From NCBI RefSeq assembly GCF_028369105.1, contig NZ_JAQNDO010000001.1:4680501-4744500 (forward strand): a DNA stretch of 64,000 nucleotides, given 5' to 3'. Below, piece by piece: positions 19,445-40,486 of the stretch. A program made the position numbers and the translations under genes. The notes under the pieces were generated by a model. The model saw nothing but the letters and a program-made list of their open reading frames with translations. It was not told the origin of the DNA and did not search any database. The DNA comes from Polyangium mundeleinium. Its GTDB lineage: Bacteria > Myxococcota_A > Polyangia > Polyangiales > Polyangiaceae. Position 1 is the stretch's first letter. Each line of letters begins with the position of its first letter.

Positions 19445-19470
19445 GGGGCGGCGACGTGTCGCGCCGCCCC
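19445..19470 (+). other. Hairpin between gltC and gltD
   Basis: GGGGCGGCG (19445-19453) pairs perfectly with CGCCGCCCC (19462-19470) around an 8-nt loop, followed by a second small stem GCGGC-aaa-GCCGC at 19480-19492. With no U-run these look like an mRNA processing or stability element rather than a terminator, leaving gltC-gltD co-transcribed. Confidence 0.45.
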
Positions 19471-19530
19471 GGGGGGATTGCGGCAAAGCCGCCTCCGGGT
19501 TGCGAGTTATCAGTTGAGGAGATGACGACG

Positions 19531-22500
19531 ATGAAGCAGTCCAACGTGAGTGCGCTGCGACGGCTCCGTTTCGTGACGGGCGCAGCAGCACTTTTCACCG
19601 CCGCCGTCGCGACGGGCCCGGCGTCGGCCGCCGATGAATGCATCACGCAACAAGCCAAGGACTCGCTGGCGCAGTGCCCCGGCGGGTCGCTCAAGCAGAG
19701 CGCTGGCAAGAAGCCGGCGATGAGCTTCAAGTCGGCGCCGCAGGGCGTTCAGCTGAAGAAGCGGGACGACCAGCTCAAGCCGACGAATCCGACGGCGTCG
19801 ATGAACGCCGCGCAACGCGACGAGCGTCGCAACCGGCTGGCAGCGCGCTCGCGCCAGCTGCTCATCACCGAGATCCAGGGCCTCGAGAGCCTCTTCTCGA
19901 ACACCCCGAAGAACGCGCCCGATCGTCCGAAGCTGATGCGGCGTTTGGCCGAGGGGTACGTCGAGCTTGAGTCGGCCGCGTTCCGCGACAAGACCGAGCA
20001 GAGCATCAACGCCGACGAGGCGAAGCGCAAGAACCCCAAGGCAGAGAAGGGGTTCCGTGACGAGGCGGCGAAGGCCGACAAGATCCTCGTCGCCGCGAGG
20101 CAGCAGGCGATCAAGTACTACTCGCTGCTGAAGAATGGCTACCCGAAGTGGTGCCAGAGTTCGAACGCGCAGGACCCGACGAAGAGCACGGGCTGCACGG
20201 ACGAGGTGCTCTACTACCTCGCGTATGAGTACGAGCAGGCCAACCAGCTCGATCAGGCGCGCAAGGTGTACTTCGAGCTGATCCAGAACTGGCCGCAGTC
20301 GAAGTTCATCCCGAACGCGTACCTCGCATTCGGCGAGCTCTTCTTCAACGAGGCGCAGGGCGATCCCTCCAAGTGGCAGCTCGCGGAGCAGTCGTACCAG
20401 GAGGTCGTGAAGTACCCGCCGCCGGACAACAAGGTCTGGGGCTACGCGCACTACAAGCTCGGCTACGTGTACTGGAACCAGGGCGAGTTCCCGAAGGCGC
20501 TCACCGAGTTCAAGAAGACCATCGAGTACGGCATGCAGTACCAGCAGCTGCCAAACGCGAAGGAACTCGCGAACTCCGCGCGGCGCGACATCATCCCGGT
20601 GTACGCGCTCGCGGCGGCACCGAAGGCCGCGCACGACTTCTTCAAGCCGCTCTCGGGCGACACGGGCGTCAACAACGAGAAGACGCTCAAGATGCTCGAC
20701 GACCTCGGCCAGAACTACCTGGACACCGGCCACTACAAAGAGGGCATCGAGCTCTACAAGGACCTCATGGTCCGCGATCGTGGCCCGAAGTACTGCAAGT
20801 ACCAGGGCCACATCACCGAGGCCACGCTTGCCATGAAGTCCGGCAACAAGGACTCGATCAAGGGCGAGCTCGACCAGATGCTCGAGGTGCACAACAAGTT
20901 CATCAGCGAGGGGCACCCCGACGACATGAAGCTGAAGTGCTCGAACGCGACCGCGGGTCTTCTCACGGAGACCGCAATGGCGTGGCACCTCGAGGCCGTC
21001 GGATCAGGCGGCGTGCGCGGCACGGGTGACAAGAAGACGATGACGCTCGCGACGCTGCTCTACGAGCGCGTCGTGCAGAACTTCAAGCAGGAGCAGTTCG
21101 CGCGCTTCGAGTTCCCGCGCATCGTGAAGGAAGACTGGCCGAACGTCTTCAAGATCAAGTACGCGATGGCCGACCTCGCGTACTTCAACAAGGATTGGGC
21201 CAAGTGCGGCCCGGCCTTCGACTCGGTCGTCGCGGAGGATCCGAGCGGCCCGCTCGCGCCCGAGGCCGCGTTCGCAGCGGTGCTCTGCTACCAGAACATC
21301 TACACCGAGATGCACAAGGACGGCTCGGAGAAGAAGGGCACCGGGCAGCTCCCGAGTGCTGCGGATGGTGGCAAGAAGGGCGACAAGAAGGCCGACAAGG
21401 CCAAGTGGGCCCCGAAGGATTTGACCGACAACCAGAAGGGCATGCTGACCGCGTTCAACCGGTACATCTGCTACATCAAGCCGCCGGAGAACGACAAGGA
21501 AGCCCAGGAAAACTACGTCGAGGTCAAGTACGCGCGCGCCCGCACGTACTTCGAGGCGCAGCACTGGGAGGAGGCGGCGTACGCGTTCCGCGACGTCGCG
21601 GTGAACCACTCCGACAAGGACGTCGGCATCTACGCGACGCAGCTCTACCTCGAGTCGCTCAACATCCTTGGCTCGAACTCGGAGCCGGCACGGCCCTCCT
21701 GCTACGACAACATGGCCGAGGACGTGCCCAAGTTCCTCGACCTGTACTGCAAGGGCGGCAAGGAAAAGGAGAACGCCGAGCAGTGCGGGATCCTGACGCG
21801 CATCCAGCGCGACATCGAGCGTCTGCGCGCGCAGAAGCTCATCGAGTCGGCGGACGCCGGTGGCCAGGGCGTCGACACGATCAAGATGTACGAGCGCGGC
21901 GCGCAGGCCTACATGGACCTGTGGAAGAAGTACGGCGAAGCCGCGTGCGAGAAGAAGGAAGCCTCCTGCGAGAAGGGCGAGGAGATCCTCTACAACGCGG
22001 CTCGCGCGTTCCAGGCTGCACGCCTCATCGCGAAGTCGATCACGGCGCGTCAGATCCTGCTGAACCCGAAGTACAACCTCGACAAGACCGAGCTCGCGAA
22101 GAAGTCGATCTACGAGATCGGCGGTAACTACCAGGCGATCGCGGTCTACGACGAGGCGGCGAACTGGTACGAGCGGTTCTCGCGCGAGAACCCGAAGATG
22201 GAGAAGGCTGCCGAGGCGCTTCAGGACGCCGTCGTGCTTCGTCTCGGTCTTGGTCAGGAGGATCAGGCGATCAAGGACGCCGACCTCTTCAACAAGAACT
22301 ACGGGTCACAGAAGCCGACCGAGGCAGCGAAGATCGCGTTCGCCATCGGGTCGCACTACATCGACAAGGAAGATTGGGACGGCGCGCGGCGGCGGCTCAG
22401 CTCGGCCATGGGCCAGATCGATCGCAACGCGACGTTCGACGTCCAGATCCAGGCGCACGCGCTGCTCGGGCGGGTCTTCACGAAGATCAACAACCCGTCG

Positions 22501-23376
22501 AGCGCGACGCCCGAGTACAACAAGGTCCGCGGCTACTGGAAGGATCCGCAGGCTGCGCTGAAGAAGCTCGACTCCATCGGCGGCAGTGAGGAAGAGAAGA
22601 TTCGTCGTCTGGGCAAGTCGCTGACGGCCGTCGGTGAGGCGCTCTTCTTCTTCGCCGAGCTGAAGCGTAAGGAGGTCGATAAGATCCGGTTCCCCGAATA
22701 CAAGGGCTCCGGCCAGCGTGACGATGTGATGAAGCACATCAACACGAAGGTCATGGACTGGATCAAGAAGAAGCGGCCGGCGATCGAGGAAGCCTCGAAC
22801 GAGTACGTGAAGATCGTCAACCTCGAGCCGCTGCCTCCGCCTCGCTGGGTCATCGCCGCCGGTTCGCGTGTCGGTCAGATGTGGAGCAAGTTCGTCGCCG
22901 AGTTCCGTGCCGCGCCGATCCCGAAGGAGTGGAAGGGCAACGGAATGGTCCCGGGTACGGACCTCAGCTACGCCGAGCTCCGCGGCGAGTACTACGTGAA
23001 GCTCGACGAGGCGAGCGAGCCGCAGAAGTTGGCTGCGAAGGCCGCCTTCAAGAAGTGCCTCGACTACTCGGTCAAGTATCAGTTCTTCGATGAGTACTCG
23101 CGTGCCTGCGAGGTGTGGCTGTCGAAGAACTACGGCGCCGAGTACCACCTCATCGACGAGTTCCGTGGTTCGCCGTCGCGGGTGAACTCGGGTCTCAGCG
23201 ATCGCGCGCAGCCGCTCAACCTCGACGGTACGGCGTTCACGCCTGCGAGCGATGCTCCGCAAGCCGAGAACAAGCCTGCGGCGGCGCCGGCGACGGGCGA
23301 CAAGCCCGCCGAGGCGAAGCCCGGCACGTCACCCGAGAAGGCCGCCATCGAGGGCGCCACCACCAAGAAGAACTAA
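19531..23376 (+). CDS. gltD: Adventurous gliding motility TPR protein GltD (AgmU)
   Basis: 1,281 residues from ATG 19531; GAGGAG at 19516-19521 gives 9-nt spacing to it, better than the in-frame ATG at 19522 that touches this site. Signal peptide LRFVTGAAALFTAAVATGPA, then a long TPR solenoid (EVLYYLAYEYEQANQLDQAR, HYKLGYVYWNQGEFPKALTE, YARARTYFEAQHWEEAAYAF) and a Pro/Ala tail. In M. xanthus GltD/AgmU is a very large TPR protein of the gliding complex, mainly periplasmic, required for A-motility. Size, fold and order gltC-D-E-F-G fit. The gap to gltE is 11 nt, so they share a transcript. Confidence 0.85.
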   Translation: MKQSNVSALRRLRFVTGAAALFTAAVATGPASAADECITQQAKDSLAQCPGGSLKQSAGKKPAMSFKSAPQGVQLKKRDDQLKPTNPTASMNAAQRDERRNRLAARSRQLLITEIQGLESLFSNTPKNAPDRPKLMRRLAEGYVELESAAFRDKTEQSINADEAKRKNPKAEKGFRDEAAKADKILVAARQQAIKYYSLLKNGYPKWCQSSNAQDPTKSTGCTDEVLYYLAYEYEQANQLDQARKVYFELIQNWPQSKFIPNAYLAFGELFFNEAQGDPSKWQLAEQSYQEVVKYPPPDNKVWGYAHYKLGYVYWNQGEFPKALTEFKKTIEYGMQYQQLPNAKELANSARRDIIPVYALAAAPKAAHDFFKPLSGDTGVNNEKTLKMLDDLGQNYLDTGHYKEGIELYKDLMVRDRGPKYCKYQGHITEATLAMKSGNKDSIKGELDQMLEVHNKFISEGHPDDMKLKCSNATAGLLTETAMAWHLEAVGSGGVRGTGDKKTMTLATLLYERVVQNFKQEQFARFEFPRIVKEDWPNVFKIKYAMADLAYFNKDWAKCGPAFDSVVAEDPSGPLAPEAAFAAVLCYQNIYTEMHKDGSEKKGTGQLPSAADGGKKGDKKADKAKWAPKDLTDNQKGMLTAFNRYICYIKPPENDKEAQENYVEVKYARARTYFEAQHWEEAAYAFRDVAVNHSDKDVGIYATQLYLESLNILGSNSEPARPSCYDNMAEDVPKFLDLYCKGGKEKENAEQCGILTRIQRDIERLRAQKLIESADAGGQGVDTIKMYERGAQAYMDLWKKYGEAACEKKEASCEKGEEILYNAARAFQAARLIAKSITARQILLNPKYNLDKTELAKKSIYEIGGNYQAIAVYDEAANWYERFSRENPKMEKAAEALQDAVVLRLGLGQEDQAIKDADLFNKNYGSQKPTEAAKIAFAIGSHYIDKEDWDGARRRLSSAMGQIDRNATFDVQIQAHALLGRVFTKINNPSSATPEYNKVRGYWKDPQAALKKLDSIGGSEEEKIRRLGKSLTAVGEALFFFAELKRKEVDKIRFPEYKGSGQRDDVMKHINTKVMDWIKKKRPAIEEASNEYVKIVNLEPLPPPRWVIAAGSRVGQMWSKFVAEFRAAPIPKEWKGNGMVPGTDLSYAELRGEYYVKLDEASEPQKLAAKAAFKKCLDYSVKYQFFDEYSRACEVWLSKNYGAEYHLIDEFRGSPSRVNSGLSDRAQPLNLDGTAFTPASDAPQAENKPAAAPATGDKPAEAKPGTSPEKAAIEGATTKKN

Positions 23377-23387
23377 GGGAGCGAGCC

Positions 23388-25550: not shown

Positions 25551-27611
25551 ATGGAAGGCAAGCAGAAGGTCGCGCTCACGTTCGCGCTCTACCAGAATGA
25601 AGCGCTCGTGCGTCGAGAGACGGTGACGCAGGACATCGTCAAGGTTGGAAAGGACCCGAAGAGCCATCTGCGCGTCGACGACGAGCTGGCCTCGCGCATG
25701 CACGCCGTCATCGAGGTGGCGTCGCCCGAGGACATCACGCTGATCGACCTCGGCAACGAGCCGGGGACGCTCGTGAACGGCGCCCGGGTGAACAAAGTCA
25801 AGATCAAGGCCAACGATCAGCTGCAGATCGGCGGCACGAAGATCGTGCTCGAGAAGGCCGAGCCGGTGGCGGTCGCGGGGGGCGCGGCGAAGGCGCCCGG
25901 CAACCCGTTTGCCGCGGCTCCTGCGGCGAACCCGTTTGGCGCGGCTCCCGCGGCGAACCCGTTTGCGGCAGCGGGCGGCAACCCGTTCGCGGGCGCTCCC
26001 GCGGCGGCGCCGAGCCCGTTCGGTGGTGGCGGCGGCGACCCGTTCGGCATGAACAACCCCTTCGCGCAGCCGAAGCCGCCTGCGCACGATGAAGTGCCGC
26101 ACGACGCGCCCGAGGGCTCGTACACGTACCAGCTTGTCAAGAGCGGCCCGGACGTCCCGAACGAGGAGGTCGAGTCGCCCTCCGCTTCCGTCGAGGTGAT
26201 GATCATGTGGGATCAGATGGTCCTGCACGTCTCGCACCTGACGCCGCCGCGCTCCTTCTACGTGGGCGAAGAAGAGAGCAAGAACTTCAAGTGCGATTAC
26301 TTCGTGCCCCAAGAGAAGATCGGCACGACGCGCGCCCCGGTGGTGCTCGCGGATCGCGGCGGGTCGGTCTCGGTGGTGCTCCTGCCTCGCGCGAAGGGCA
26401 CGATCGAGTTCGCGGGCCAGCCGAAGATGACGGTGCAGCAGGCGATCGACAGCGGCAAGACGCAGCCCTGCTCGGAGCTCTCGGGCGCGTTCCAGATCGC
26501 GCTGCCGCCGGGCTCGAAGGCGCGCATCGACGTGGACGGCCTGATCTTCCAGGTGTCGACGGTGAACGCGGGCCGCGTGGTCGCGGGGCACGTGCAGTTC
26601 GACACGCAGAACTACCTCTACCACGGCCTGTCGATGGCCGTTCACCTCGGGCTCCTCGCGGCGATGGCGTTCTTCATGCCGCCGCTCGGTGCCACGGACG
26701 AGGACGGGGTCTCGGACGATCAAAAGTTCATGATCCAGCAGTTCCTCAACGCGGCCGCTGAAAAGGAGATGGAGGAGAAGGAGACCGAGCAGGTCGCCGA
26801 CAACGCCGCCGACAACAAGGAAGGCGGTACGGGCACGCGCGCGAAGGGTGAAGAGGGTTCCATGGGTAACCCGAACACCAAGTCATCGGGCAACCGGTAC
26901 GGCGTGCAAGGCCCGGCGGACAACGCCGATCCGCACATCGCGCGGCAGGCAGCGCTGCGTGACGCGGCGGAGTTCGGCATGATCGGTCTGCTCAACTCGG
27001 GCGCCGGTGGTGATCCGAACGCGCCGACGGCCCCCTGGGGTCGCGACGATTCGCTCGGCAACGACGCTCTGTCGGCCCGCGGCAACATGTGGGGCGACAA
27101 CATCGGCGACTCGTTCGGCGCGGGCGGCCTCGGTTTGTCCGGTATCGGCGAAGGCGGCGGTGGCCGCGGCGAGGGTATCGGTCTCGGCTCGATCGGCACG
27201 ATCGGCCACGGCGCGGGCACCGGCACGGGCCAGGGCTTCGGCTCCGGTCACGGCCGCTTGTCGGGGTCGCACCGCACGAAGCCGCCGCAGGTGCGCATGG
27301 GCGCCACGAGCGTGAGCGGTCGTCTCCCGCCCGAGGTCATCCAGCGTATCGTGCGTCAGAACTTCGGTCGTTTCCGCCTCTGCTACGAGAACGGCCTGCG
27401 GAACAACCCGAACCTCCAGGGCCGCGTCGGGGTGCGCTTCGTCATCGGTCGTGACGGCGCGGTGTCGAACGTGGGCAACGGTGGCTCGGACATGCCGGAT
27501 GGCGGCGTGGTGTCGTGCGTGGTCCGCGCGTTCTACGGTCTGTCCTTCCCGCAGCCGGAAGGCGGCATCGTGACGGTCGTGTACCCGATCATGTTCAGCC
27601 CCGGCGGCTGA
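25551..27611 (+). CDS. gltG: Gliding motility protein GltG (PglI-type): FHA domain, one TM, TonB-like C-terminus
   Basis: 686 residues. Order: FHA domain (about 20-105, VGKDPKSHLRVDDELASRMH), which binds phosphothreonine peptides; a 60-residue linker with repeated NPF triplets; a beta-rich domain; one transmembrane helix (about 360-380, HLGLLAAMAFFMPPLG); a long Gly-rich periplasmic spacer; and a C-terminal AgmX/PglI-type TonB-like domain (LPPEVIQRIVRQNFGRFRLC to VVYPIMFSPGG). This architecture is that of GltG, which links cytoplasmic signals to periplasmic Glt proteins, presumably coupling proton-motive force. The topology puts FHA in the cytoplasm, where the window's Ser/Thr kinases could act. 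A terminator follows. Confidence 0.88.
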   Translation: MEGKQKVALTFALYQNEALVRRETVTQDIVKVGKDPKSHLRVDDELASRMHAVIEVASPEDITLIDLGNEPGTLVNGARVNKVKIKANDQLQIGGTKIVLEKAEPVAVAGGAAKAPGNPFAAAPAANPFGAAPAANPFAAAGGNPFAGAPAAAPSPFGGGGGDPFGMNNPFAQPKPPAHDEVPHDAPEGSYTYQLVKSGPDVPNEEVESPSASVEVMIMWDQMVLHVSHLTPPRSFYVGEEESKNFKCDYFVPQEKIGTTRAPVVLADRGGSVSVVLLPRAKGTIEFAGQPKMTVQQAIDSGKTQPCSELSGAFQIALPPGSKARIDVDGLIFQVSTVNAGRVVAGHVQFDTQNYLYHGLSMAVHLGLLAAMAFFMPPLGATDEDGVSDDQKFMIQQFLNAAAEKEMEEKETEQVADNAADNKEGGTGTRAKGEEGSMGNPNTKSSGNRYGVQGPADNADPHIARQAALRDAAEFGMIGLLNSGAGGDPNAPTAPWGRDDSLGNDALSARGNMWGDNIGDSFGAGGLGLSGIGEGGGGRGEGIGLGSIGTIGHGAGTGTGQGFGSGHGRLSGSHRTKPPQVRMGATSVSGRLPPEVIQRIVRQNFGRFRLCYENGLRNNPNLQGRVGVRFVIGRDGAVSNVGNGGSDMPDGGVVSCVVRAFYGLSFPQPEGGIVTVVYPIMFSPGG

Positions 27612-27959
27612 CGTTCGATCGGACCGTGTAGCGATGCCCCGCGGGTCACGAGCCCGTGGGGCATCGTGTTTTTGTCGACGAGCATCGGCGCGCGGGGGAG
27701 CGTCTGGGTCTCCCGAGTACGGCCGGACGCTTGGCCGGCGCGTTGGGAGATGGGCACAATCCAACTGGACTTTCGGCGCGCCATCCGCCTATTCTCGGCG
27801 CGCAAGAGAACGTCTCGTCCTATGCCTGGGCGGCAATTTGGCTGCAAGTTCGAGGACTTATGTGCGTGCTTGGTGCGGGTGGGGCTACCGTGGCCCTCGA
27901 CGCGCGCGGGTGACGCGAGGAGCGGCGGAGCCGGCTCCGAGAGAAAGGTGAGCGAAGCA
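27612..27959 (+). other. Intergenic region after gltG
   Basis: 348 nt. The first 60 nt hold the gltG terminator. The remainder should contain the promoter of the TPR lipoprotein gene; a TATTCT at 27789-27794 is the best -10-like match but has no good -35. The long ORF extending through here in frame with the TPR lipoprotein has no ribosome site. Confidence 0.5.
27633..27673 (+). terminator. Intrinsic terminator after gltG
   Basis: GATGCCCCGCGGGT pairs with GCCCGTGGGGCATC (12 of 14 positions) around a 5-nt loop and is followed by GTGTTTTT, 21 nt after the gltG stop codon. Confidence 0.88.
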
Positions 27960-28871: not shown

Positions 28872-28939
28872 TCGGGGGCGCGGTTCGTCGACGTCGTTTG
28901 CAAGGCCTTTTGTAGGTCAGGTCAGGGGCCGAGGAATCC

Positions 28940-31900
28940 ATGGATCTTGCGCAGCGTCTGAAGCATCTCGAGTCGGTTCGTGAATGGCAGGGGCTCGCTG
29001 AAGAGCTCGAGAAGGGGCTCGCCAGCGAGGCGGATGCCACGGCGAAGGCCGGTTACCACCTGCGTCTTGGGCGGCTCCTCGAGGAGAAGTTCCTCCAGGG
29101 CGTCAAGGCGCTCAAGCATCTGCAGGACGCCTTCAAGCTGAATTCGACGCTCACCGAGGCACTTCGCCTCGCGCGGCTCGTGTACTGGGACCTTGGCAAG
29201 ATCAACATGGTCCAGAGGCTCCTCGAGCTCGAGCTGAAGGGGCTCGGGGATGGCCCCGAAGCGACCGCGCTGCTCGTGGAGCTCGGGGACGTGTACTGCG
29301 ACATCGGCGAGAACGAGAAAGCCGTGTCGACGTACGCGCGCGCGCTCGGTACGTCCGGGGGCACGAGCGAGGAGGCGCGCGCCGGCCTGGCCGACGCGCA
29401 GGTCGAGCTGGAGAGCTGGGAGGCGCACGTCGCAGAGCTCCTCCAGCGCGCGAACGACGCGTCGCTCGACGGGGCTTCGCGGGCGCGCCTGTTCTTGCGA
29501 GCCGCGCGGCTCGCGCGTCGCTTCGCGCCGGCGGAGGTCGATGACCTTCTCGCGAAGGCGTACGAGGCAAACCCGCTCGATCGCCAGGTAGCCGCGCTCT
29601 ACGAGGGGATCCTCGTGGAGGAGGAGCGCTCGCAGACGCTCGTCGATGCACAGCGCCGCGTGCTCGACGCGATGAGCGGCCGTGGTCGCGCCGAGTCCGC
29701 GCTTCGGTTCGGTACGCGCTGGGCGACGCGCCATCAGAACGCGGAGCTCGGCGCGAAGCTGCTCGAAGAGGCGCTCGCGCACGACCCCGAGGCCGAGGGC
29801 GCGTTCACGTACCTGCGTGATCTTTGGGGTGCCAAGGAAGGCGATTGGGAGCGTGTTGCGGTGCTCGCCGAAAAGATCGCTTCGGACGGCGGGAACGGCT
29901 CGCCGTTCATGCTCGCCCAGGCCGGCGGGATCATCTGGCAGAAGCTCGGCAACGTGATGCGCGCGCGGCCCTGGTTCGAGAAGCTCTCGCAGGTCGCGCC
30001 GCAGCACCCGACGCTGCTCGCGTTCGAGACGCAGATCGGCGAGCGCCTCGGCGCGGCGACCTCGGTGCCCGCGGCTTCGGTGCCTGCGGCTTCGGTGCCT
30101 GCGGCTTCGGTGCCCGCCGTGTCCGAGCCTGCGCCGTCCGCTGCTGCACCCGAGGTGGAGACCGAGGTGTCCACGGAGGTCGTCGAGGAGGAGGACGCCG
30201 TCGACTGGGCGAAGATCGAAGAGCTCAAGGCGAAGGCGCAGAAGCAGGAGCAGGCCAAGCGCTTCAACGAGTACGTCAAGACGCTCGTCGAGCTCGCGGA
30301 GGCGGTGCCCGACGCGGCGGACAAGATCTCGTACTACCTGCAGGCCGCGGAGCTCTACACGGGCAAGTTCTCGAACGCGGCCGAGGCCGTGAAGTGCTTT
30401 GAGGCGATCCTCGTCATCGACGGCGAGAATGCGCAGGCGATCGAGTATCTGCAGCAGAGCTACGAGAAGCGTCGCGACTGGGAGAAGCTCATCGGGCTGA
30501 ACCGGCGCAAGGCGCAGATGATGCCGCCGGGGCCGTCGCGCGCCGAGAAGTTCCTCGAGATCGCGAAGCTCGCCACCGAGCGCGTCAAGAAGCCCGAGGT
30601 CTGCGTCGAGCTGTGGGACGAGGTCCTCGCCGACGATCCGGAGAACGTCGAGGCGCTGAACGCGCTGTCGGGCCTCCACGAGCGCTCGAAGGACTGGGAC
30701 AAACTCGCCGTGGTGCTGCAGAAGCAGGTCGAGATCACGGCCGACTTCAAAGCGAAGGAGGCGCTGCTCGGCAAGCTCGGCGCTCTCTACGGCGAGCGCC
30801 TGAACAACGACGACGCCGCGATCGACGCGTGGGAGCAGCTCCTCACGCTGAACCCGAACGAGCGCAAGGCCCAGGAGGCGCTGAAGAAGCTCTACCTGAA
30901 GGTCGCTCGCTGGGAGGACCTGCAGCGGTTCTACGAAGAGCAGGGCAAGTGGGACGAGTTCATCCGCGTTCTCGAGTCGCAGGAGGCGAAGGAGACCGAG
31001 GACAAGAACAAGATCAGCCTGCTCATGAAGACGGCCCAGCTCTGGCTCGATCAGAAGAGCAAGGCCGATCGGGCGATGAAGGCCTACGAGAAGGTGTGGA
31101 CGATCGACGCCGGGTACTTGCCGGCCGCCGAGGCGCTCATCCCGCTCTACACGCAGGCCAACAACGCGAAGGGGCTCGCGGTCGCGATCGAGGTCAAGCT
31201 CGCGAACGATCAGGACGCCGATACGAAGCTCGCGCTTTACCGTGAGGTCGCGGGCCTCTACGAGGCGAAGCTCAAGGAGCCGCAGAAGGCATTCGAGCGG
31301 TTCCTGTCCGCGTTCGAGCTCGCGCCCGGCGACGAGCAATGCGTCGAGGACGTGGAGCGCGTCGCGCGCACGACGGGAAGCTGGGACAGCCTCATCGCGT
31401 CGTACGGCAAGACGATCGCGCGCGCGGACGAGGATGTGGATCGGGATCTCGGGATCGCGCTGCGTCTCCGGCTCGGTCGTGTGCTCGTCGACGAGGTCAA
31501 GCGCGTGGACGACGCGCTCGCGCAGTTCCGCGCCGTGTACGACACGGATAGCGAGAACGCTGCGGCGATCTCGGCGCTCGAGCGTCTCTACCGCGACACG
31601 GGTCGGTTCACGGAGCTCCTCGAGATCTACAAGCGCAAGCTCGAGCTGGCGCAGGACACCGAGGAGACGAAGAGCATCCGCTACGCGATCGCGCAGCTCT
31701 ACGTGAACGAGATCAAGGATCCGGGGAGCGCGATCACGACGTACAACGAGGTCCTCCAGGACGATCCGGCCGACGCGCCGGCGCTCGAAGCGCTCGACAC
31801 GCTCTACCGCGAGCAGGAGCAGTGGGAGAGCTACGTCGACGTGCTGCGTCGACGCATCGAGCTGAACCTCGGTGACGCGATCACGGTCGACCTGAAGTAC

Positions 31901-34900
31901 CGGCTCGGCTCGACGCTCGAGAAGCTCGGCGACGCGCACGGCGCGCTCGACAACTACCGGGAGATCCTGGTCCTCGATCCGGCGAACGACGGCGCTCGCA
32001 TCGCGCTCGAGAAGCTGCTCGAGAACGAGGAGCTCCGCGCTGAGGCGGCCGGGATCCTGCAGGAGATCTACGAGACGCGCGGCGACTGGGAGAAGCTCAT
32101 CCAGTCCCTCGAGATCCTGGCGGCCGCGGAGGCGGACGTCGGGACGCGCGTGAACCTCCTGCGCAAGGTCGCCCGTACGGCGGCCGAGCACCTGACGGAT
32201 CTCGCGCGGGCATTCGAAGCGCAGAGCCGCGCGCTGAAGGACGATCCATCGAACGGCGAGACGCGCGGCGAGCTTGAGCAGCTCGCGGCGCAGGCCGGCT
32301 CGTGGGACAAACTCTTCGCGGTCTTCAGTGAGATCGCGGGGGGCCTGAGCGACGAGCGGCTCGCACGCGAGTACTGGATGCGGCTCGCGGGCATCTCGGA
32401 GAAGCTCGGTAAGATCGAGGACGCGGCGAACGGCTACAAGCGCGTGCTCGAGATCGATCCGGCGGACGGCGAGGCGCTCGCTGCGATGGACGCGCTCTAT
32501 CGCCGCACCGAGCGGTGGCAGGACCTCATCGAGGTCTTCCGCCGTCGTATCGCGCTCGCGCCGGAGTTCACGGATCGCGAGGCGCTTTTCGCGCAGATGG
32601 CCGAGGTCTACGAGGAGAAGCTCTCGCAGCCCGGCGACGCGATCGCGGCCTATCAGGAGGTGCTGCGCGAGGATCCGACGAGCAACGTGGCGCTCGCCGC
32701 CCTCGACGGGCTCTTCTCGCGGCAGAGCATGTGGGAGGACCTCGCGGACAACTTGGAGCAGCAGCTCCGGTACGCCACCGAGGACGAGCAGCAGATCCGG
32801 CTCATGCTCCGCCTTGCGGCGCTGCGCGAGTCGAAGATGAACCTGCTCGAGACCGCGATCGAGGGCTACCGTCAGGTCCTCGAGCGCGAGCCCGCGAATG
32901 CGGAGGCGCTCGGCGCGCTCGAACGGCTCGGCAAGCTGCCCGAGCACGAGGTGGCGATCGCCGAGATCCTCGAGCCGCTCTACAGGGCCTCGGGCGATTA
33001 CATGAAGCTCATCGGCGTGCACGAGGTGCAGGTCCGACGGAGCGACGACGTGAGCCGCAAGGTGGAGCTGCTCCATCAGATCGCGACGCTCTACGAGGAC
33101 GCCGGCGGTGATCTGAACTCGGCCTTCGACACGTACGCGCGCGCGCTCGGACACGACCCGGCGCTCGACACGACGCAGCAGGGCCTGGATCGGCTGGCGC
33201 GCGCAACGGGGCGGTTTGCCGACCTCGCGCGCGTGCTGGAGGAGCTCGCGGCGCAGCAGCAGGAGCCGGAGCTTTCGAGCCAGCTCTACACGATGAGCGC
33301 GCGCGTCTACGAGTCGGACATCGGCGACATCGAGAGCGCGATCAAGCACTACCGCAAGGTGCTCACGATCGACGCGCGCAACCTCGGCGCGGCCGAGGCG
33401 CTGGAGAACCTCTTCAGGGCCGCGGATCGCTTCGAGGAGCTCTCGCAGATCCTGCAGCAGAAGGCCGACATCCTCGACGAGCTTGGCGAGAAGAAGGGCG
33501 CGCTCTTCCAGGCGGCGTCGATCGAGGAGGAGATCCTCCAGCGGCACGACGCTGCGATCGCGGTGTACGGCAAGATCCTGGAGCTCGACCCGGAGGATCT
33601 CGGCGCGATCGATCAGCTCATCAAGCTCTATCTCGGTTTGTCGCGGTGGGCCGACCTTCTCGCGGTGTACACGAAGAAGGTCGATCTCGTCGGTGATCCC
33701 GAGGAGAAGAAGAGCATCTACTACCAGATGGGCGCGGTCTACGAGAGCGAGCTCAAGGACGTGCCGGCGTCGATCGACACGTACCAGCGCGTGCTTGAGC
33801 TCGATCCGGACGATCAGCAGGCGCTCGGTCGGCTCGACGTGCTCTACCAGCAGGCCCAGAACTGGCACGAGCTGCTCGGTGTGCTCGAGCACCTCTCCCG
33901 CATCTCGGCCGATCCGGCGGAGCAGATCAGCTACAACTACCGAATCGCCGAGCTCTACGAGAAGCACCTCGGCGACGTGCAGCGCGCGATCGAGCTCTAT
34001 CGCGATCTGCTGCAAGTGATGCCCGATCACGAGCCCACGCTGGTGGCCCTCGAAGGCATCAAGAGCGGCGGCGCGGCGGCGGCGCTCGAAGCAGCCCTCG
34101 TGCTCGAGCCCATCTACGACACCGCGCAGCAGTGGGACAAGCTGATCAGCGTTCTCGAGGTTCAGGTCGCGAAGGCGGAGGATCCGTACGCCAAGGTGGA
34201 GCTGCTCCACCGCATCGCGCGCCTGCACGAGGAGATGCTCGGCAACCACCAGGCGGCCTTCGATACGTACGCGCGGGCGGTGACGTTCGACATCGCGAAC
34301 CAGGATTCACTCGGCAACATCGAGCGGCTCGCGATGTACGTGACGCGGTGGAAGGATGTCGCGGCGCTCTACGATCAGGAACTCGGCAAGCTCGGTGAGC
34401 AGCCGGATCAGTTCGTCGAGCTCGGGCTCCGCCTCGCGGGGATCTTCGAGACGCAGCTCGAGGATGTCGACAGCGCGGTGGCGCGCTACCGGCGCGTGCT
34501 CGAGGTCGACGCGGAGAACTGGACGGCGATTTCCTCGCTCGACCGGCTCTTCACGATGGCCGAGCGCTGGACCGATCTCGTGCCCGTGCTCGCGCGCGAG
34601 GCCGAGTCGTCGCCGAACCCGGAGGACGCGCTCGAGTTCAAATATCGGCTCGGTCAGGTCCACCAGCTCCGCTTGAACGACCTGGCGGCGGCGATCGGCG
34701 TCTACCGCGAGATCCTGAATGCGGCGCCCGATCACACGGCGACGCTGGAGGCCCTCGAAGGCCTCTTCGCGGCGGGCGTGAAGCAGCTCGAGATCGGCGA
34801 GATCCTGGAGCCGCTCTACCAGTCGTCCGGTGACTGGGAGAAGCTCGCGGGTGTCCTCGAGGCGCAGCTCACGCACCTCACGGAGTCCGCGGATCGGCTC

Positions 34901-37900
34901 ACCATGTACTACCGCATGGCGGAGATCCACGAGGAGCGGCTCGTGGCGCTCGACGGCGCGCTCGGCGTGTACGTCCGCGTGCTCAAGGAGTACCCGGCGG
35001 ACGAGAAGACGCTCGAAGAGGTCGAGCGGCTCGGCGGCTCGACGGACGGCGGCTGGAACACCCTCGGCGACGCCTACGCCGACGTGCTCGGCCTGCACGG
35101 CGACAAGGCGGTGCAGACGAACATCGGCACGCGGCTCGCGCGCGTGTTCGAGGAGGAGCTGCGCGACATCGAGAAGGCGGAGCAGACGTACCGGTACGTG
35201 CTCGGCGTTGATCCGCTCGATCCGAAGGCGCTCGCCGAGCTCGATCGGATCTACACGGGGCTCGAGCAGTACGCCGACCTCGCGGGGATCCTCGAGCAGC
35301 GGGTCAAGGTGCCGATGGAGCCTTACGAGCACATCGAGCTCTACGGCCGCCTCGGCCAGGTGTACGAGGAGCAGCTCGGGCAGGTGGACGACGCGATCCG
35401 CGCCTTCCGCCGGCTCTTCGACGAGCTCGACCTGAACAACGAGGCCGCGATCTACGCGCTCGAGCGCCTGTACGGCAGCAAGGGTTCGTGGACCGAGCTG
35501 ATGGGCGTCTACGAGCGCGAGCTCCAGATCACGGCGAACGAGGGCGATGTGCGCGCGAAGATGGCGCGCCTGCTCTCCGAGCCGGAGATGCTCAACAACA
35601 TCCCGGCCGCGATCGACATGTGGAAGCAGGTCCTCGACATCAAGGGCGAGGACACGGAGGCGCTCTTCGCGCTCGCGAACCTGTACGAGCGCGAGCAGCG
35701 GTGGGCGGAGCTCTGCGAGGCCCTCGAGCGGCAGTTCGACGTCGAGCCGACTGACGAGGCGCGCGTGGCTGTGCTCCTCCGTCGCGCGAAGCTCTACAAC
35801 GACAAGCTGACGCGCGACGACCTCGCGCTCGACGATTACAACCGCGCGCTCGACATCGAGTACGCGAACGTCGAGGCGCTCTACGCGATCGCGGACATCT
35901 GGCGGAAGCGCAACGATCCGAACGAGCTCGTGAGCATCCTCCACCAGACGGTGGATCGCGCGGGTTCGGTGCTACCGGCCGAGAACGTGGTGGCCCTCTA
36001 CCGCGAGCTCGGGACGACGTACCAGAACGTGCTCGTCCAGGCGTACGACGCGATCGACGCGTGGCGGAAGCTACTCGCGGTCGATCCGCGCGACTTCGAG
36101 GCCATGGCGGCGCTCGAGAACCTGCTCCGCGCGGAAGAGCGCTGGGTCGAGGTGATCGACGTCAAGATGGGCCGCGCGGCGGCGTACGAGGACGGCGCGG
36201 AGAAAATCCGCGAGTACCTCGAGGTCGCCGACATCTGGGAGCACCAGGTCCAGGACAAGGACAAGGGCACGCCGGCGTACGAGAAGGTCCTCGAGATCGA
36301 GTCGACGCACGATCGGGCCTACCTCGCGCTCGAAGAGCTGCACTCGGCCGCGCACCGCGCCGAGCCGCTCATCGAGCTGTACCTCGCGCGCCTCGACTCG
36401 CGCGAGGACACCGACGAGAAGACGGACATCCTCCGCAAGGTCGCGCGCGTATTCGAGACCGAGCTCGAGGACCGGATGCAGGCGTTCGACGCACTGCTCA
36501 CGGCGTTCGAGCTCGACTTCGACAACATGGACACGGTTCGTTACCTCGAGCGCATGGCGCAGGCGACGAACCGCTGGCCGGAGCTCGTGCAGACGGTCAA
36601 CGGCTGGCTGCAGGCGCTGAACCCGGAGAGGGATCCGCTTCGCACGATCCGGCTCTGCCTGCACCTCGCGAAGTGGTACGCGGAGGACCTCGGGCACCCC
36701 GAGTACTCGCAGCCGTACTACGGCAAGGTGCTGCAGATCGACCCGAACAACGTCGACGTGCTGCGCCAGATGGCGAACTTCCACAAGAAGGGCGGCCAGT
36801 GGCAGCAGCAGGGCCAGATGCTCACGCGGGCGCTCGAGATCGCCGTCAAGGACACCGATCGCAAGGAGATCCTGACGGAGCTCGGCGAGGTGCTCGAGAA
36901 GAACGCGGGCGACGTGGAGCAGGGCCTCTCGTTCTACAAGCGCGCGCTCGACGTGGACGCGTACCACCTGGCAGCGCTCGAGGCGCTTGACCGCATCTAC
37001 ACGGATCGCGGCCTGCTCCCCGAGCTCGTCGACGTCCTGACCCGCAAGGGCAAGGCGCAGACGGAGGCCTCGCAGATCGCGGCCACGAAGCTGCGTTGCG
37101 CGGGCCTCTACGAGAAGGACCTCGGCCAGATCGAGAAGGCGGGTCAGGTCTACCGCGAGGTGCTCGAGGTGGACGCGGCAAACCTGCTCGCGATGCGCGG
37201 CCTCGAGCGCGTCTACAACCAGACGCACCAGTGGCCGGATCTCGTGGGCGTTCTCGAGATGCAGCTCGACGTGGTCACGACGGAGCGCGAGCGCATCGAC
37301 GTGCTGCTCAAGATCGCGAAGATCCAGGAGGAGCAGTTCCTCAAGCCGGATCTCGCGGCCGCGAGGCTCGAGCAGGTCGTGGACATCGATCCGCACCACG
37401 AGGCGGCGCTCGACTCGCTCGAGCGTTGCTACCGCCGGCTGCGGCAGTGGCACGACCTCATCAACACCTACGATCGCCACATCAACGCGACGATCGATCG
37501 GCAGAAGAAGATCGAGCTCTGGTCGGCGACGGCGAAGGTGTACGCCGAGGAGGTCCAGGACTTCGACCGCGCGATTGACGCGTGGCTGAACATCACGGAC
37601 CTCGACGACAAGCACATCCCGGCGCTCGAGGCGCTCGCGAAGCTCTACGAGAAGCAGGAGGATACGTCGCGCGCCATCGACTATATGACGCGCGTCGCCG
37701 ACCTGACTCCGGACGGCAAGCAGCGTGTCGAGATGTATTACCGGATCGGCAAGCAGCTCGACGAGAAGATCGGGGATCGGATCGCGGCGCGGGATCGGTT
37801 CGAGATGGCTCTCGATCTGGATCCGGCGCACCTGCAGACCCTGGCCGCGTTGCGCGTCATCGCGATCGACTCCGAGGATTGGGACACCGCTGCGCGGTAC

Positions 37901-40228
37901 CTCGATCAGGAGCAGATGAACACCGAGGCGCCGCGCCAGCGCGCCAAGCTCCTCGTGGAGCTCGGCAGGCTGCGCGACGATCGGCTCGGCGAGCACGATC
38001 TCGCGGTGCAAGCGTACGAACTCGCGCTCCAGAGCGACGGCGACAACGAGGACGCGGCGATGCCCTTGCTCGCGGAGTACGTGAGCAACGAGAAGTGGGC
38101 GAAGGCGGAGCCGCTCGGCGAGATGCTCGTCCGGAAGTCGGGCAAGCGCGAGAAGTCCGAGCAGCACCGGCTGCAGAACACGTTCGGCAAGGTGCTCGTC
38201 GCGATCGGGAAGAACGAGCAGGCGCTCAAGGCGTACCAGGCTGCCTACGCGATCGACATGACGAACCGCGAGACCATTGAGGGCCTCGCCGACGTCTGCT
38301 TCCGCTTGGGTGACTGGGCCGGCGCGCTGACGAACTACCAGAAGGTCCTCGGGACGACGGACGAGGCCGAGACCGAGGCGCGCGCGAACGTCTACTACAA
38401 GCTCGGCCTCATCAAGCAGAACCAGGGCCAGGCGAAGCAGGCGATCAACAACTTCGAGAAGGCTCTCGGCGTGGAGCCGGCCCACCGGCCGACGCTCGAC
38501 GCGCTCGTCGGCGTCTACGACGGGCTGAAGGACTGGAAGCAGGTCGCGCACTACAAGCGCCAGATCCTCGACAACATCATCGACGGCGCCGAGCGCTTCA
38601 AGCTCCTCGGCGAGATCGCCGATACGTGGGAGAAGGATCAGAACCCGACGAAGTCCGTCGAGGCGCTCGAAGAGGCGCTCGATCTGGAGCCGCAGAACCA
38701 CGTTCTGCTGCACCGGATGCTCACGCTGTACCAGAAGGTTGGTCAGTGGGAGCAGATGGTGGACACGCTCCAGCGCATCGCGGACCTCGAGACGCAGCCC
38801 GGTCGCAAGTCGCGCTACTTCTTCACGATGGCGCAGATCTACCGCGACAAGCTCGAGGAGCTCCCGCGCGCGGTGGACCTGTTCAACGACGCACTGGATC
38901 TCGATCCGGCGTTCCTCGACGCGTTCGAGCGCATCAACAAGATCCTCACGTCGCAGAGGGACTGGAAGCAGCTCGAGCGCGCCTACAGGAAGATGCTGCA
39001 CCGCGTGGCGGGCAAGGGGAACATCGACCTCGAGTTCACCCTCTGGCACGCGCTCGGTCTCATCTACCGCGACCGGCTCGAGGACGTGAACGCAGCGGTC
39101 GAGACCTTCAAGATCGCCGCGCGTCTCAAGCCGGAGGACGTGCAGGAGCACCAGATCCTGGCGCAGCTCTACACGGGCCTCGGGAACACGGAGGACGCGA
39201 TCTCCGAGTACCAGTCGCTCGTGAAGATCGACGCGACGAACGCCGACTCCTACCACGAGCTCTACCGGCTCTACGTGGAGCAGAAGTCGTACGATCCGGC
39301 GTGGTGCACGGCGGCGGCGCTCGCGTTCATCCGCAAGGCCGACGAGGACGAGCAGCGCTTCTTCGAGGACTACCGTCCGCAGGGGATGTTGCAGGTCAAG
39401 AACCGGCTCGACAACGAGCAGTGGCTCCGGAACCTCTTCCACGAGGAAGAGAACCTCTACATCGGCAAGATCTTCGAGATGATCGCCTCCGCGGCGCTCA
39501 AGGCGAAGATCGCGACGCTGGAGGCGAAGAAGGAGAAGCCGGTCCTTGATCCGCGGTTCCGCCAGGATCCGGCCACGTCGACCGTCACGTTCGCCCGTAC
39601 GTTCGGTTGGGCCTCGCAGGTGCTCGGGATCCCGTGCCCGGCGCTGTACGTGCGCAGCGACGTGCCGGGTGCCCTCGTCGCCGTTCCGGCCGAGCCGCCC
39701 TCGTCGGTTGCGGGTCAAACGGTTTTGACTGGGTTCTCGCCGCAGGAGCTGACGTTCATCATCGGCAAGCACCTCGCGATGTATCGCGGCGAGCACTACA
39801 TCAAGACGCTGTTCCCGACGGTCACCGAGCTGACGGTGCTCCTCTTCGCGGCGATCAAGCTCGTCCAGCCGGACGCGCCTTCGCCGGCGGACATCGACAA
39901 GCAGGTGCTGGCGACGGCGCAGACGATCCGTCAGTTCATGCAGCCGATGCAGATCGAAGGTCTGCGGATGGTCGTGAAGAAGTTCGTGGCGGACGGGGCA
40001 AAGGCGAACCTGAAGCGGTGGTCGCAGTGCGTGGACATCACGGCGAACCGCGCGGGGTACCTGCTCTGCGGCGACCTCGAGATCGCGAAGAAGATCATCG
40101 CGGCCGAGCCGCAGCAGCCGGGTGATCTGCCGCCGCAGGAGAAGCTGAAGGAGCTGCTCCTGTTCTCGGTGTCGGATCAGTACTTCGCGCTGCGGCAGCA
40201 GCTCGGCATCGCGATCGGCGGCGAGTAA
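28940..40228 (+). CDS. gltI: Giant TPR gliding motility protein GltI (AgmK)
   Basis: 3,762 residues, close to the size I recall for M. xanthus AgmK/GltI. GAGGAA precedes ATG 28940. No signal peptide or transmembrane helix, so it is probably cytoplasmic. After about 370 residues of TPR-like helices there is a Pro/Ala/Val linker with 15-bp DNA repeats, then some 3,100 residues of degenerate TPRs in a repeating W/L...A...Y..VLE.DP...A..AL..LY pattern. The last 300 residues are different: ELTFIIGKHLAMYRGEH and CVDITANRAGYLLCGD match the M48 metallopeptidase core with HExxH and ExxxD destroyed. GltI is expected to be a large scaffold on the cytoplasmic side of the gliding machine. Confidence 0.9.
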   Translation: MDLAQRLKHLESVREWQGLAEELEKGLASEADATAKAGYHLRLGRLLEEKFLQGVKALKHLQDAFKLNSTLTEALRLARLVYWDLGKINMVQRLLELELKGLGDGPEATALLVELGDVYCDIGENEKAVSTYARALGTSGGTSEEARAGLADAQVELESWEAHVAELLQRANDASLDGASRARLFLRAARLARRFAPAEVDDLLAKAYEANPLDRQVAALYEGILVEEERSQTLVDAQRRVLDAMSGRGRAESALRFGTRWATRHQNAELGAKLLEEALAHDPEAEGAFTYLRDLWGAKEGDWERVAVLAEKIASDGGNGSPFMLAQAGGIIWQKLGNVMRARPWFEKLSQVAPQHPTLLAFETQIGERLGAATSVPAASVPAASVPAASVPAVSEPAPSAAAPEVETEVSTEVVEEEDAVDWAKIEELKAKAQKQEQAKRFNEYVKTLVELAEAVPDAADKISYYLQAAELYTGKFSNAAEAVKCFEAILVIDGENAQAIEYLQQSYEKRRDWEKLIGLNRRKAQMMPPGPSRAEKFLEIAKLATERVKKPEVCVELWDEVLADDPENVEALNALSGLHERSKDWDKLAVVLQKQVEITADFKAKEALLGKLGALYGERLNNDDAAIDAWEQLLTLNPNERKAQEALKKLYLKVARWEDLQRFYEEQGKWDEFIRVLESQEAKETEDKNKISLLMKTAQLWLDQKSKADRAMKAYEKVWTIDAGYLPAAEALIPLYTQANNAKGLAVAIEVKLANDQDADTKLALYREVAGLYEAKLKEPQKAFERFLSAFELAPGDEQCVEDVERVARTTGSWDSLIASYGKTIARADEDVDRDLGIALRLRLGRVLVDEVKRVDDALAQFRAVYDTDSENAAAISALERLYRDTGRFTELLEIYKRKLELAQDTEETKSIRYAIAQLYVNEIKDPGSAITTYNEVLQDDPADAPALEALDTLYREQEQWESYVDVLRRRIELNLGDAITVDLKYRLGSTLEKLGDAHGALDNYREILVLDPANDGARIALEKLLENEELRAEAAGILQEIYETRGDWEKLIQSLEILAAAEADVGTRVNLLRKVARTAAEHLTDLARAFEAQSRALKDDPSNGETRGELEQLAAQAGSWDKLFAVFSEIAGGLSDERLAREYWMRLAGISEKLGKIEDAANGYKRVLEIDPADGEALAAMDALYRRTERWQDLIEVFRRRIALAPEFTDREALFAQMAEVYEEKLSQPGDAIAAYQEVLREDPTSNVALAALDGLFSRQSMWEDLADNLEQQLRYATEDEQQIRLMLRLAALRESKMNLLETAIEGYRQVLEREPANAEALGALERLGKLPEHEVAIAEILEPLYRASGDYMKLIGVHEVQVRRSDDVSRKVELLHQIATLYEDAGGDLNSAFDTYARALGHDPALDTTQQGLDRLARATGRFADLARVLEELAAQQQEPELSSQLYTMSARVYESDIGDIESAIKHYRKVLTIDARNLGAAEALENLFRAADRFEELSQILQQKADILDELGEKKGALFQAASIEEEILQRHDAAIAVYGKILELDPEDLGAIDQLIKLYLGLSRWADLLAVYTKKVDLVGDPEEKKSIYYQMGAVYESELKDVPASIDTYQRVLELDPDDQQALGRLDVLYQQAQNWHELLGVLEHLSRISADPAEQISYNYRIAELYEKHLGDVQRAIELYRDLLQVMPDHEPTLVALEGIKSGGAAAALEAALVLEPIYDTAQQWDKLISVLEVQVAKAEDPYAKVELLHRIARLHEEMLGNHQAAFDTYARAVTFDIANQDSLGNIERLAMYVTRWKDVAALYDQELGKLGEQPDQFVELGLRLAGIFETQLEDVDSAVARYRRVLEVDAENWTAISSLDRLFTMAERWTDLVPVLAREAESSPNPEDALEFKYRLGQVHQLRLNDLAAAIGVYREILNAAPDHTATLEALEGLFAAGVKQLEIGEILEPLYQSSGDWEKLAGVLEAQLTHLTESADRLTMYYRMAEIHEERLVALDGALGVYVRVLKEYPADEKTLEEVERLGGSTDGGWNTLGDAYADVLGLHGDKAVQTNIGTRLARVFEEELRDIEKAEQTYRYVLGVDPLDPKALAELDRIYTGLEQYADLAGILEQRVKVPMEPYEHIELYGRLGQVYEEQLGQVDDAIRAFRRLFDELDLNNEAAIYALERLYGSKGSWTELMGVYERELQITANEGDVRAKMARLLSEPEMLNNIPAAIDMWKQVLDIKGEDTEALFALANLYEREQRWAELCEALERQFDVEPTDEARVAVLLRRAKLYNDKLTRDDLALDDYNRALDIEYANVEALYAIADIWRKRNDPNELVSILHQTVDRAGSVLPAENVVALYRELGTTYQNVLVQAYDAIDAWRKLLAVDPRDFEAMAALENLLRAEERWVEVIDVKMGRAAAYEDGAEKIREYLEVADIWEHQVQDKDKGTPAYEKVLEIESTHDRAYLALEELHSAAHRAEPLIELYLARLDSREDTDEKTDILRKVARVFETELEDRMQAFDALLTAFELDFDNMDTVRYLERMAQATNRWPELVQTVNGWLQALNPERDPLRTIRLCLHLAKWYAEDLGHPEYSQPYYGKVLQIDPNNVDVLRQMANFHKKGGQWQQQGQMLTRALEIAVKDTDRKEILTELGEVLEKNAGDVEQGLSFYKRALDVDAYHLAALEALDRIYTDRGLLPELVDVLTRKGKAQTEASQIAATKLRCAGLYEKDLGQIEKAGQVYREVLEVDAANLLAMRGLERVYNQTHQWPDLVGVLEMQLDVVTTERERIDVLLKIAKIQEEQFLKPDLAAARLEQVVDIDPHHEAALDSLERCYRRLRQWHDLINTYDRHINATIDRQKKIELWSATAKVYAEEVQDFDRAIDAWLNITDLDDKHIPALEALAKLYEKQEDTSRAIDYMTRVADLTPDGKQRVEMYYRIGKQLDEKIGDRIAARDRFEMALDLDPAHLQTLAALRVIAIDSEDWDTAARYLDQEQMNTEAPRQRAKLLVELGRLRDDRLGEHDLAVQAYELALQSDGDNEDAAMPLLAEYVSNEKWAKAEPLGEMLVRKSGKREKSEQHRLQNTFGKVLVAIGKNEQALKAYQAAYAIDMTNRETIEGLADVCFRLGDWAGALTNYQKVLGTTDEAETEARANVYYKLGLIKQNQGQAKQAINNFEKALGVEPAHRPTLDALVGVYDGLKDWKQVAHYKRQILDNIIDGAERFKLLGEIADTWEKDQNPTKSVEALEEALDLEPQNHVLLHRMLTLYQKVGQWEQMVDTLQRIADLETQPGRKSRYFFTMAQIYRDKLEELPRAVDLFNDALDLDPAFLDAFERINKILTSQRDWKQLERAYRKMLHRVAGKGNIDLEFTLWHALGLIYRDRLEDVNAAVETFKIAARLKPEDVQEHQILAQLYTGLGNTEDAISEYQSLVKIDATNADSYHELYRLYVEQKSYDPAWCTAAALAFIRKADEDEQRFFEDYRPQGMLQVKNRLDNEQWLRNLFHEEENLYIGKIFEMIASAALKAKIATLEAKKEKPVLDPRFRQDPATSTVTFARTFGWASQVLGIPCPALYVRSDVPGALVAVPAEPPSSVAGQTVLTGFSPQELTFIIGKHLAMYRGEHYIKTLFPTVTELTVLLFAAIKLVQPDAPSPADIDKQVLATAQTIRQFMQPMQIEGLRMVVKKFVADGAKANLKRWSQCVDITANRAGYLLCGDLEIAKKIIAAEPQQPGDLPPQEKLKELLLFSVSDQYFALRQQLGIAIGGE
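30063..30119 (+). repeat. 15-bp tandem repeat inside gltI
   Basis: About four copies of a GCTTCGGTGCCTGCG-like unit encode a PAASV repeat, forming a flexible linker around residues 375-393 between the first TPR block and the main array. In-frame slippage here would change linker length only. Confidence 0.75.
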
Positions 40229-40254
40229 CCGCTCTCCGCGCGGACAAAAGCGAG

Positions 40255-40289
40255 CCGCCCTCCTCGGAAGGGGAGGGCGGTTTCGTTTT
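40255..40289 (+). terminator. Intrinsic terminator after gltI
   Basis: CCGCCCTCC (40255-40263) pairs with GGAGGGCGG (40272-40280) around an 8-nt loop, followed by TTTCGTTTT. It starts 27 nt after the gltI stop. AAAAG on the 5' side could allow partial function for the convergent kinase gene too. Confidence 0.88.
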
Positions 40290-40291
40290 GT

Positions 40292-40486
40292 GTACCAACG
40301 GCTGCGTGGAGGGGCGCTGGCGGGCCCCTCCCGTTGGTATCGGCCGCACCGAGGTCGATGCACCAAAGGTCCAGGGCTGGCCCTGGTCCGGGTCGAGGGG
40401 TGGACAGCCCCGGGGTTTGGGGCGTGGCTTGGCTTGCCGAGCTACGCCCCATCGTTGACCAGACGGGCCCGGGGTGAAACCCCGGC
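40292..40486. repeat. Array of four hairpins in convergent intergenic region
   Basis: Four stems in about 195 nt. First, TACCAACGG (40293-40301) with CCGTTGGTA (40331-40339), enclosing GAGGGGC/GCCCCTC (40309-40315/40324-40330). Second, CCAGGGC-tg-GCCCTGG (40371-40386). Third, GGGGCGTGGCTTGGC with GCCGAGCTACGCCCC (40419-40433/40436-40450, 13 of 15 paired). Fourth, CCGGGGT-gaa-ACCCCGG (40469-40485). None is followed by a U-run. It lies between gltI and the convergent kinase gene and could be a structured RNA, a transcription barrier or a repeat element. Confidence 0.6.

What the first reader, a model, noticed from the sequence alone, without database searches (positions are those of the whole stretch)
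39730..40228. C-terminal pseudo-M48 metallopeptidase domain in GltI
The last 300 residues leave the TPR pattern. ELTFIIGKHLAMYRGEH aligns by eye with the M48 motif ELxFxxGHELGHxxxGH, and CVDITANRAGYLLCGD with ELSADRAGLLxxGD. The zinc ligands are replaced: HExxH becomes KHLAM (Lys3610-His3611), and ExxxD becomes Asp3699...Asn3703. A dead protease fold on a giant TPR scaffold recalls TPR-M48 fusions such as BepA and could be a peptide-binding module in the motility machine. I know of no description of this.
Basis: partly seen in the sequence, partly recalled or inferred. Interest (0 to 1): 0.75.

Follow-up and report, generated by a model that had tools for sequence, protein, structure and literature searches.

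The report
Dead-protease cap on gliding scaffold GltI
The tail of GltI, a giant scaffold protein of the myxobacterial gliding machine, is an M48-type protease fold that has lost its catalytic parts; the same tail is found on TPR-containing protein kinases across the phylum, so it looks like a reused docking or capping module rather than an enzyme.

Summary
The last ~285 residues of the 3762-aa GltI-type protein are homologous to M48 metallopeptidases. The link runs through a myxobacterial M48 subfamily with intact HExxH, present in the same genome. Profile-profile comparison gives P = 7e-12 (score 89; best of 100 column-shuffled decoys 27), and profile searches agree in both directions. Two confident AlphaFold models (pLDDT 94 and 95) match M48 structures first, though with modest scores. 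No Pfam or NCBIfam model covers the domain.

Loss of catalysis is family-wide. Of 141 distinct sequences none has HExxH. Lys/Arg replaces the first zinc His in 129, the third-ligand position stays acidic in 136, and the HP 'plug' is gone. The dead motifs are the best-conserved segments. The domain is in 144/145 genomes of the order and 133/237 of the phylum; all copies form one group in the tree.

New here: the same cap ends Ser/Thr-kinase-TPR proteins. I propose a zinc-free cap or docking module in which a Lys/Arg-Glu/Asp ion pair stands in for zinc. Partner and function are untested, and M. xanthus GltI itself could not be checked.

The parts
28940..40228 (+). GltI/AgmK-type giant TPR protein, 3762 aa, carrying the C-terminal pseudo-M48 cap
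   Evidence: GltG-family gene upstream; GC3 0.93
39299..40225 (+). Conserved C-terminal region used for all searches (residues 3454-3762), last TPR-like helices plus pseudo-M48 domain
   Evidence: AlphaFold pLDDT 94.3
39455..40216 (+). Pseudo-M48 fold (model residues 53-306)
   Evidence: VIA-align range to M48 chain 3c37; hhalign range 105-304 of the region
39746..39796 (+). Degenerate zinc helix ELTFIIGKHLAMYRGEH: HExxH replaced by KHLAM (Lys3610-Met3614); the His of HExxHxxxxH kept as His3619
40028..40075 (+). Degenerate third-ligand helix CVDITANRAGYLLCGD: Glu to Asp3699, Asp to Asn3703
40085..40132 (+). Shortened segment after the third-ligand helix; the HP active-site plug loop of M48 enzymes is absent
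   Evidence: hhalign gap opposite SHPYLPKR; 0 of 141 caps have HP in the aligned C-terminal segment
40163..40210 (+). Conserved C-terminal helix SVSDQYFALRQQLGI, aligned with ESELYKKHIG of the HExxH relative
25551..27611 (+). GltG-family gene (FHA domain, AgmX/PglI C-terminal domain): cluster context
   Evidence: NF033760 304 bits, below its cut-off of 650; NF033768 over cut-off; PF00498
27666..28871 (+). TPR lipoprotein-like gene between gltG and gltI: cluster context
19456..23376 (+). TPR protein in the gltD position: cluster context

Best explanation
The C-terminus of GltI is a catalytically dead derivative of a myxobacterial M48 metallopeptidase, joined to the end of a TPR superhelix, probably once in the phylum's ancestry, and kept as a non-enzymatic module. 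Shown by computation: homology, fold prediction, family-wide loss of HExxH and plug residues. Inferred: it binds no catalytic zinc; the Lys/Arg at the first-His position pairs with the acidic third-ligand residue and holds the former active site together; the domain then works as a rigid cap of the TPR array and as a docking surface. In GltI it would anchor one end of the scaffold to a partner in the motor-cytoskeleton assembly; in kinase-TPR-cap paralogues it would place the kinase in the same way.
For: hhalign of two cap alignments with HExxH-bearing M48 relatives: P 6.9e-12 and 9e-12; decoys far lower. Reciprocal HMM matches, 44.8 and 29.9 bits against at most 10.2 for decoys. Cap HMM finds HELGH proteins in genomes without the cap. 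AlphaFold pLDDT 94.3 and 95.3, best structural matches M48 enzymes. 0/141 HExxH, Lys/Arg at His1 in 129, acidic third ligand in 136. Former active-site helices are the best-conserved segments, 2.74-2.75 bits against mean 2.24. Caps form one group, 100/100. Same cap on kinase-TPR proteins.
Against: Function is inferred only; no partner is known. Foldseek E-values are not significant (best 0.1) and VIA Z is at most 8.2. Match to generic M48 is weak. The ion pair was not measured (no coordinates) and its association (Fisher p 0.004) is not corrected for phylogeny. Three short cap proteins show no TPR by Pfam, so the cap is not always tied to a recognised TPR array.
Confidence: 0.6

Rival explanations
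1. The cap is M48-derived but purely structural: it ends and stabilises a very long TPR superhelix and has no ligand of its own.
For: It lies at the C-terminus of TPR arrays in GltI, kinase and SIR2-like proteins with unrelated N-termini; many conserved positions are aromatic or glycine, as in a fold core.
Against: The most conserved segments are the former active-site helices, including charged and polar residues (Lys/Arg3610, Arg3616, Glu3618, His3619); some cap proteins have no recognised TPR.
Confidence: 0.25
2. The domain still binds a metal or acts chemically through changed residues (for example His3611, His3619 and Asp3699).
For: His at the Glu position in 85 of 141, His of HExxHxxxxH in 105, acidic third ligand in 136.
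Against: Both zinc histidines and the catalytic Glu are lost in all, a Lys/Arg sits where zinc should be bound, His3611 is replaced in 56 of 141, and the plug His is gone.
Confidence: 0.07
3. The resemblance to M48 is accidental: a helical domain of another fold with two chance motifs.
For: Pfam, NCBIfam and PDB sequence searches find no significant M48 match for the domain; Foldseek E-values are above 0.001.
Against: Reciprocal profile matches far above reversed and shuffled controls; M48 and other gluzincins fill the top of the structural lists for two models.
Confidence: 0.04

Closest known systems
Myxobacterial ~320-aa M48 metallopeptidase with intact HExxH (own genome C1:1852436-1853380; alignment A3)
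   Same: Homologous over the sheet, both active-site helices and the C-terminal helix; same RAGLLCxxDLE signature
   Different: Has HExxH, ExxxD and the HP plug, and no TPR array; Pfam M48 3e-25. The cap has none of the catalytic residues
BepA (E. coli periplasmic M48-TPR protease, PMC7950410)
   Same: M48 fold joined to TPRs; among the best structural matches (Z 7.1, rmsd 4.7, 154 aligned)
   Different: BepA is M48 then TPR, periplasmic and zinc-dependent with an HP plug; here a giant TPR array comes first and the M48 part is dead
GltI/AgmK of Myxococcus xanthus (MXAN_4863, 4132 aa; PMC3169522)
   Same: Giant TPR protein encoded near gltG in a G1-type cluster; no signal peptide or membrane segment reported
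   Different: Only TPRs are annotated there; whether its C-terminus carries the cap could not be checked here
Other pseudoproteases used as binding or regulatory modules (iRhoms PMC6451368; MamO PMC4794232; CspC PMC6636752)
   Same: Protease folds kept without catalysis for another use
   Different: They derive from rhomboid and serine proteases, not M48; no held paper found describes a pseudo-M48 on TPR scaffolds

Membership tests
Peptidase family M48 (homology and fold) | Significant sequence homology to M48 proteins | tested here: met
   hhalign P 6.9e-12 to HExxH relatives that match PF01435 at 3e-25; direct Pfam match absent and generic M48 match weak
Peptidase family M48 (homology and fold) | M48/gluzincin fold | tested here: met
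   Predicted models only: best matches Ste24p Z 8.2, 3c37 7.6, BepA 7.1 and, for a second model, 6.8, 6.7, 6.5
Peptidase family M48 (active enzyme) | HExxH zinc-binding and catalytic motif | tested here: not met
   KHLAM in the window; 0 of 141 distinct relatives have HExxH
Peptidase family M48 (active enzyme) | ExxxD with Glu as third zinc ligand | tested here: not met
   Asp3699 and Asn3703 in the window; first position acidic in 136/141, Asp kept in only 16/141
Peptidase family M48 (active enzyme) | HP active-site plug (H-P-x4-R) | tested here: not met
   Present in A3 as SHPxLPKR, gapped out in the caps; motif definition from PMC7950410
Peptidase family M48 (active enzyme) | Zinc binding and proteolysis | not testable with these tools
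   Needs purified protein
BepA-type M48-TPR proteases | N-terminal M48 followed by C-terminal TPR | tested here: not met
   TPRs precede the M48-like part
GltI/AgmK gliding scaffold | Giant TPR protein encoded beside gltG in a G1-type cluster | tested here: met
   3762 aa TPR ORF after a GltG-family gene; same order in distant genomes
GltI/AgmK gliding scaffold | Sequence orthology to M. xanthus MXAN_4863, including the C-terminal domain | not testable with these tools
   No named Myxococcus genome could be reached; the one genome-contig scan returned Myxococcota MAGs without species names

The most novel reading that the evidence does not exclude
The pseudo-M48 cap is a shared docking code of Myxococcota: the gliding scaffold GltI and a widespread family of Ser/Thr-kinase-TPR proteins carry the same dead-protease cap because they bind the same partner or peptide class, so that kinase signalling and the gliding machine meet at one site.
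Probability: 0.15. Interest if true: 0.75.

Novelty: new variant of a known kind. Interest (0 to 1): 0.55.

Why it matters
GltI is the largest and one of the least understood parts of the gliding machine; the papers found describe it only as a TPR scaffold. A conserved domain at its end, with defined key residues, gives a small target for deletion, point mutants and pull-downs. The cap also marks a class of myxobacterial proteins, including kinases, that neither Pfam nor NCBIfam labels, and it is a pseudoenzyme branch of M48 that I found no description of.

Tried and rejected
Pfam, NCBIfam and PDB sequence searches with the domain gave no useful match; the PDB hits were mainly designed proteins. 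Foldseek alone is not significant (best E 0.1). Generic HtpX/BepA-type M48 profiles give only a weak match. Chance resemblance was tested with reversed and shuffled sequences and shuffled alignment columns and rejected. A BepA-like architecture was rejected because the domain order is opposite. Attempts to reach M. xanthus GltI by name failed: A2 has no stretch conserved enough for the collection scan, the scan with A4 returned only MAGs, and no genome of the phylum sample passed the GltG cut-off of NCBIfam. The ion pair could not be measured because model coordinates are not exposed.

Full report
What is in the sequence. The window holds a gliding-motility G1-type cluster: a TPR protein in the gltD position (19456-23376), a TPR lipoprotein-like ORF in the gltE position (23115-24866), a GltG-family gene with FHA and AgmX/PglI C-terminal domains (25551-27611), a TPR lipoprotein-like gene (27666-28871) and the 3762-aa giant TPR gene 28940-40228. 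Pfam finds TPRs upstream and nothing in the last 309 residues; NCBIfam also has no model there.

Conservation. The C-terminal 309 residues find relatives in 144 of 145 genomes of the order, the best ones mostly at the end of ORFs of about 3300-4100 aa, and in 133 of 237 genomes of the phylum at E <= 0.001; ten of those 133 are weak matches, and of these some are HExxH M48 proteins or other degenerate relatives rather than caps. GltG-family matches lie about 12-16 kb before the cap on the same contig and strand in distant genomes (for example G271:C1, G324:C36, G236:C44, G151:C1 and G217:C1), as expected for gltG followed by gltI.

Homology to M48. The own genome has seven Pfam M48 matches. One, a 322-aa HExxH protein (L077), was hit weakly by the cap in a small tblastn set. 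Its orthologues (alignment A3) carry HExxH, an AEITCDRAGLLCC-type motif and a SHPxLPKR plug. A second cap alignment, A5, made of distant and kinase-type members, gives 97.4, P 9e-12. Column-shuffled A3 scores at most 26.6 against 89, and reversed A3 scores 13.6. Reversed or shuffled sequences reach at most 10.2 bits with either HMM, against 44.8 bits (cap HMM on an M48 protein) and 29.9 bits (M48 HMM on the window's cap). In genomes without a full cap, the cap HMM lands on HELGH proteins (L231, L235, L238) and on a separately degenerated M48 group that keeps an AEITxDRAG-type motif (L229, L232-L234, L236). In the whole own genome the HExxH protein is the sixth of seven matches. Against a generic set of 31 HtpX/BepA-type M48 domains the match is weak (score 28.3, decoys up to 19.1), while A3 matches that set at 99.6%. 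So the bridge is the myxobacterial M48 subfamily, which explains why Pfam does not see the cap.

Fold. AlphaFold2 gives pLDDT 94.3 and pTM 0.91 for the window's cap, and 95.3 and 0.92 for a kinase-type cap with a separate alignment. VIA-align lists M48 enzymes first for both: Ste24p Z 8.2 (rmsd 7.8, 183 aligned), 3c37 7.6 (5.4, 184), BepA 7.1 (4.7, 154); and Ste24p 6.8 (8.4, 185), 3c37 6.7 (5.4, 180), BepA 6.5 (5.1, 160). BlaR1 and the minigluzincins follow, then other gluzincins. The Z values are middling and Foldseek E-values are not significant, so the structural evidence supports rather than proves the fold; it agrees with the profile evidence and comes from two models.

Degeneration. Among 141 distinct caps none has HExxH. 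The first His is Arg in 66 and Lys in 63. The Glu position is His in 85. The second His is mostly Tyr, Met or Leu. The third-ligand position is Glu in 83 and Asp in 53. The Asp of ExxxD survives in 16. The last His of HExxHxxxxH is kept in 105. Lys/Arg and Asp/Glu occur together in 127; the association has Fisher p 0.004 without correction for phylogeny. The two dead-motif segments are the best-conserved parts of the domain (2.74 and 2.75 bits against a mean of 2.24), which suggests a new role rather than drift. In a tree of 101 sequences all 83 caps fall on one side of a branch with 100/100 support, consistent with one loss of catalysis before the cap spread; the root of that tree is not established by the data.

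Other carriers. In the own genome the closest paralogue (59% identical) is a protein kinase-TPR-cap protein; another kinase-TPR gene is followed at once by its cap in another frame. Five intact ORFs of 1790-1929 aa from other genomes have a protein kinase domain, TPRs and the cap, and one of 1636 aa has a SIR2-like domain, TPRs and the cap. Three shorter cap proteins (524-902 aa) have no recognised TPR or other Pfam domain. The cap is therefore a general C-terminal module of mostly TPR proteins in Myxococcota, of which GltI is one.

Mechanism. Shown by computation: homology, fold prediction, loss of catalytic and plug residues, strong conservation of the former active site, position at the end of TPR arrays. 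Inferred: no catalytic zinc; a Lys/Arg-Asp/Glu ion pair in its place; a role as cap and docking surface. [quoted passage not shown] I found no paper describing an M48-like domain in GltI or on TPR kinases; the library is partial, so absence there is weak evidence.

Noticed in passing
L250:3739-8211 (+); L255, L256, L257, L261, L262: Ser/Thr protein kinase - TPR - pseudo-M48 cap proteins of about 1500-1930 aa, in the own genome and across the order and class.
   Followed up: partly
L251:3145-8477 (own genome C1 about 6993144-6998476): Kinase-TPR gene whose cap lies directly after it in another reading frame: an apparent frameshift, by sequencing error or decay, in this genome.
   Followed up: no
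L229, L232, L233, L234, L236: A separate M48 group that lost HExxH but keeps the AEITxDRAG-type motif, in genomes of family f24 that lack a full cap; a second, independent pseudo-M48 lineage.
   Followed up: partly
L266:286-5193 (-): SIR2-like domain - TPR - pseudo-M48 cap protein, 1636 aa.
   Followed up: no
L253 (own genome C1:1973000-1987000): Two neighbouring long ORFs each end in a very degenerate relative of the cap (RRSLDRMAVIAAGDVS type).
   Followed up: no
L252:4970-7138 (+) and 7181-10531 (-): A TPR-cap gene lies tail to tail with an M3 peptidase gene; possibly coincidence.
   Followed up: no
window 28922-34249 (-) and 36071-40366 (-): Very long open frames (1775 and 1431 aa) antisense to gltI; probably a by-product of high GC at third positions.
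   Followed up: no
own genome C1:8680861-8682879 (+): A second full-length GltG-family gene (297 bits) far from the window, hinting at a further Glt-like system.
   Followed up: no
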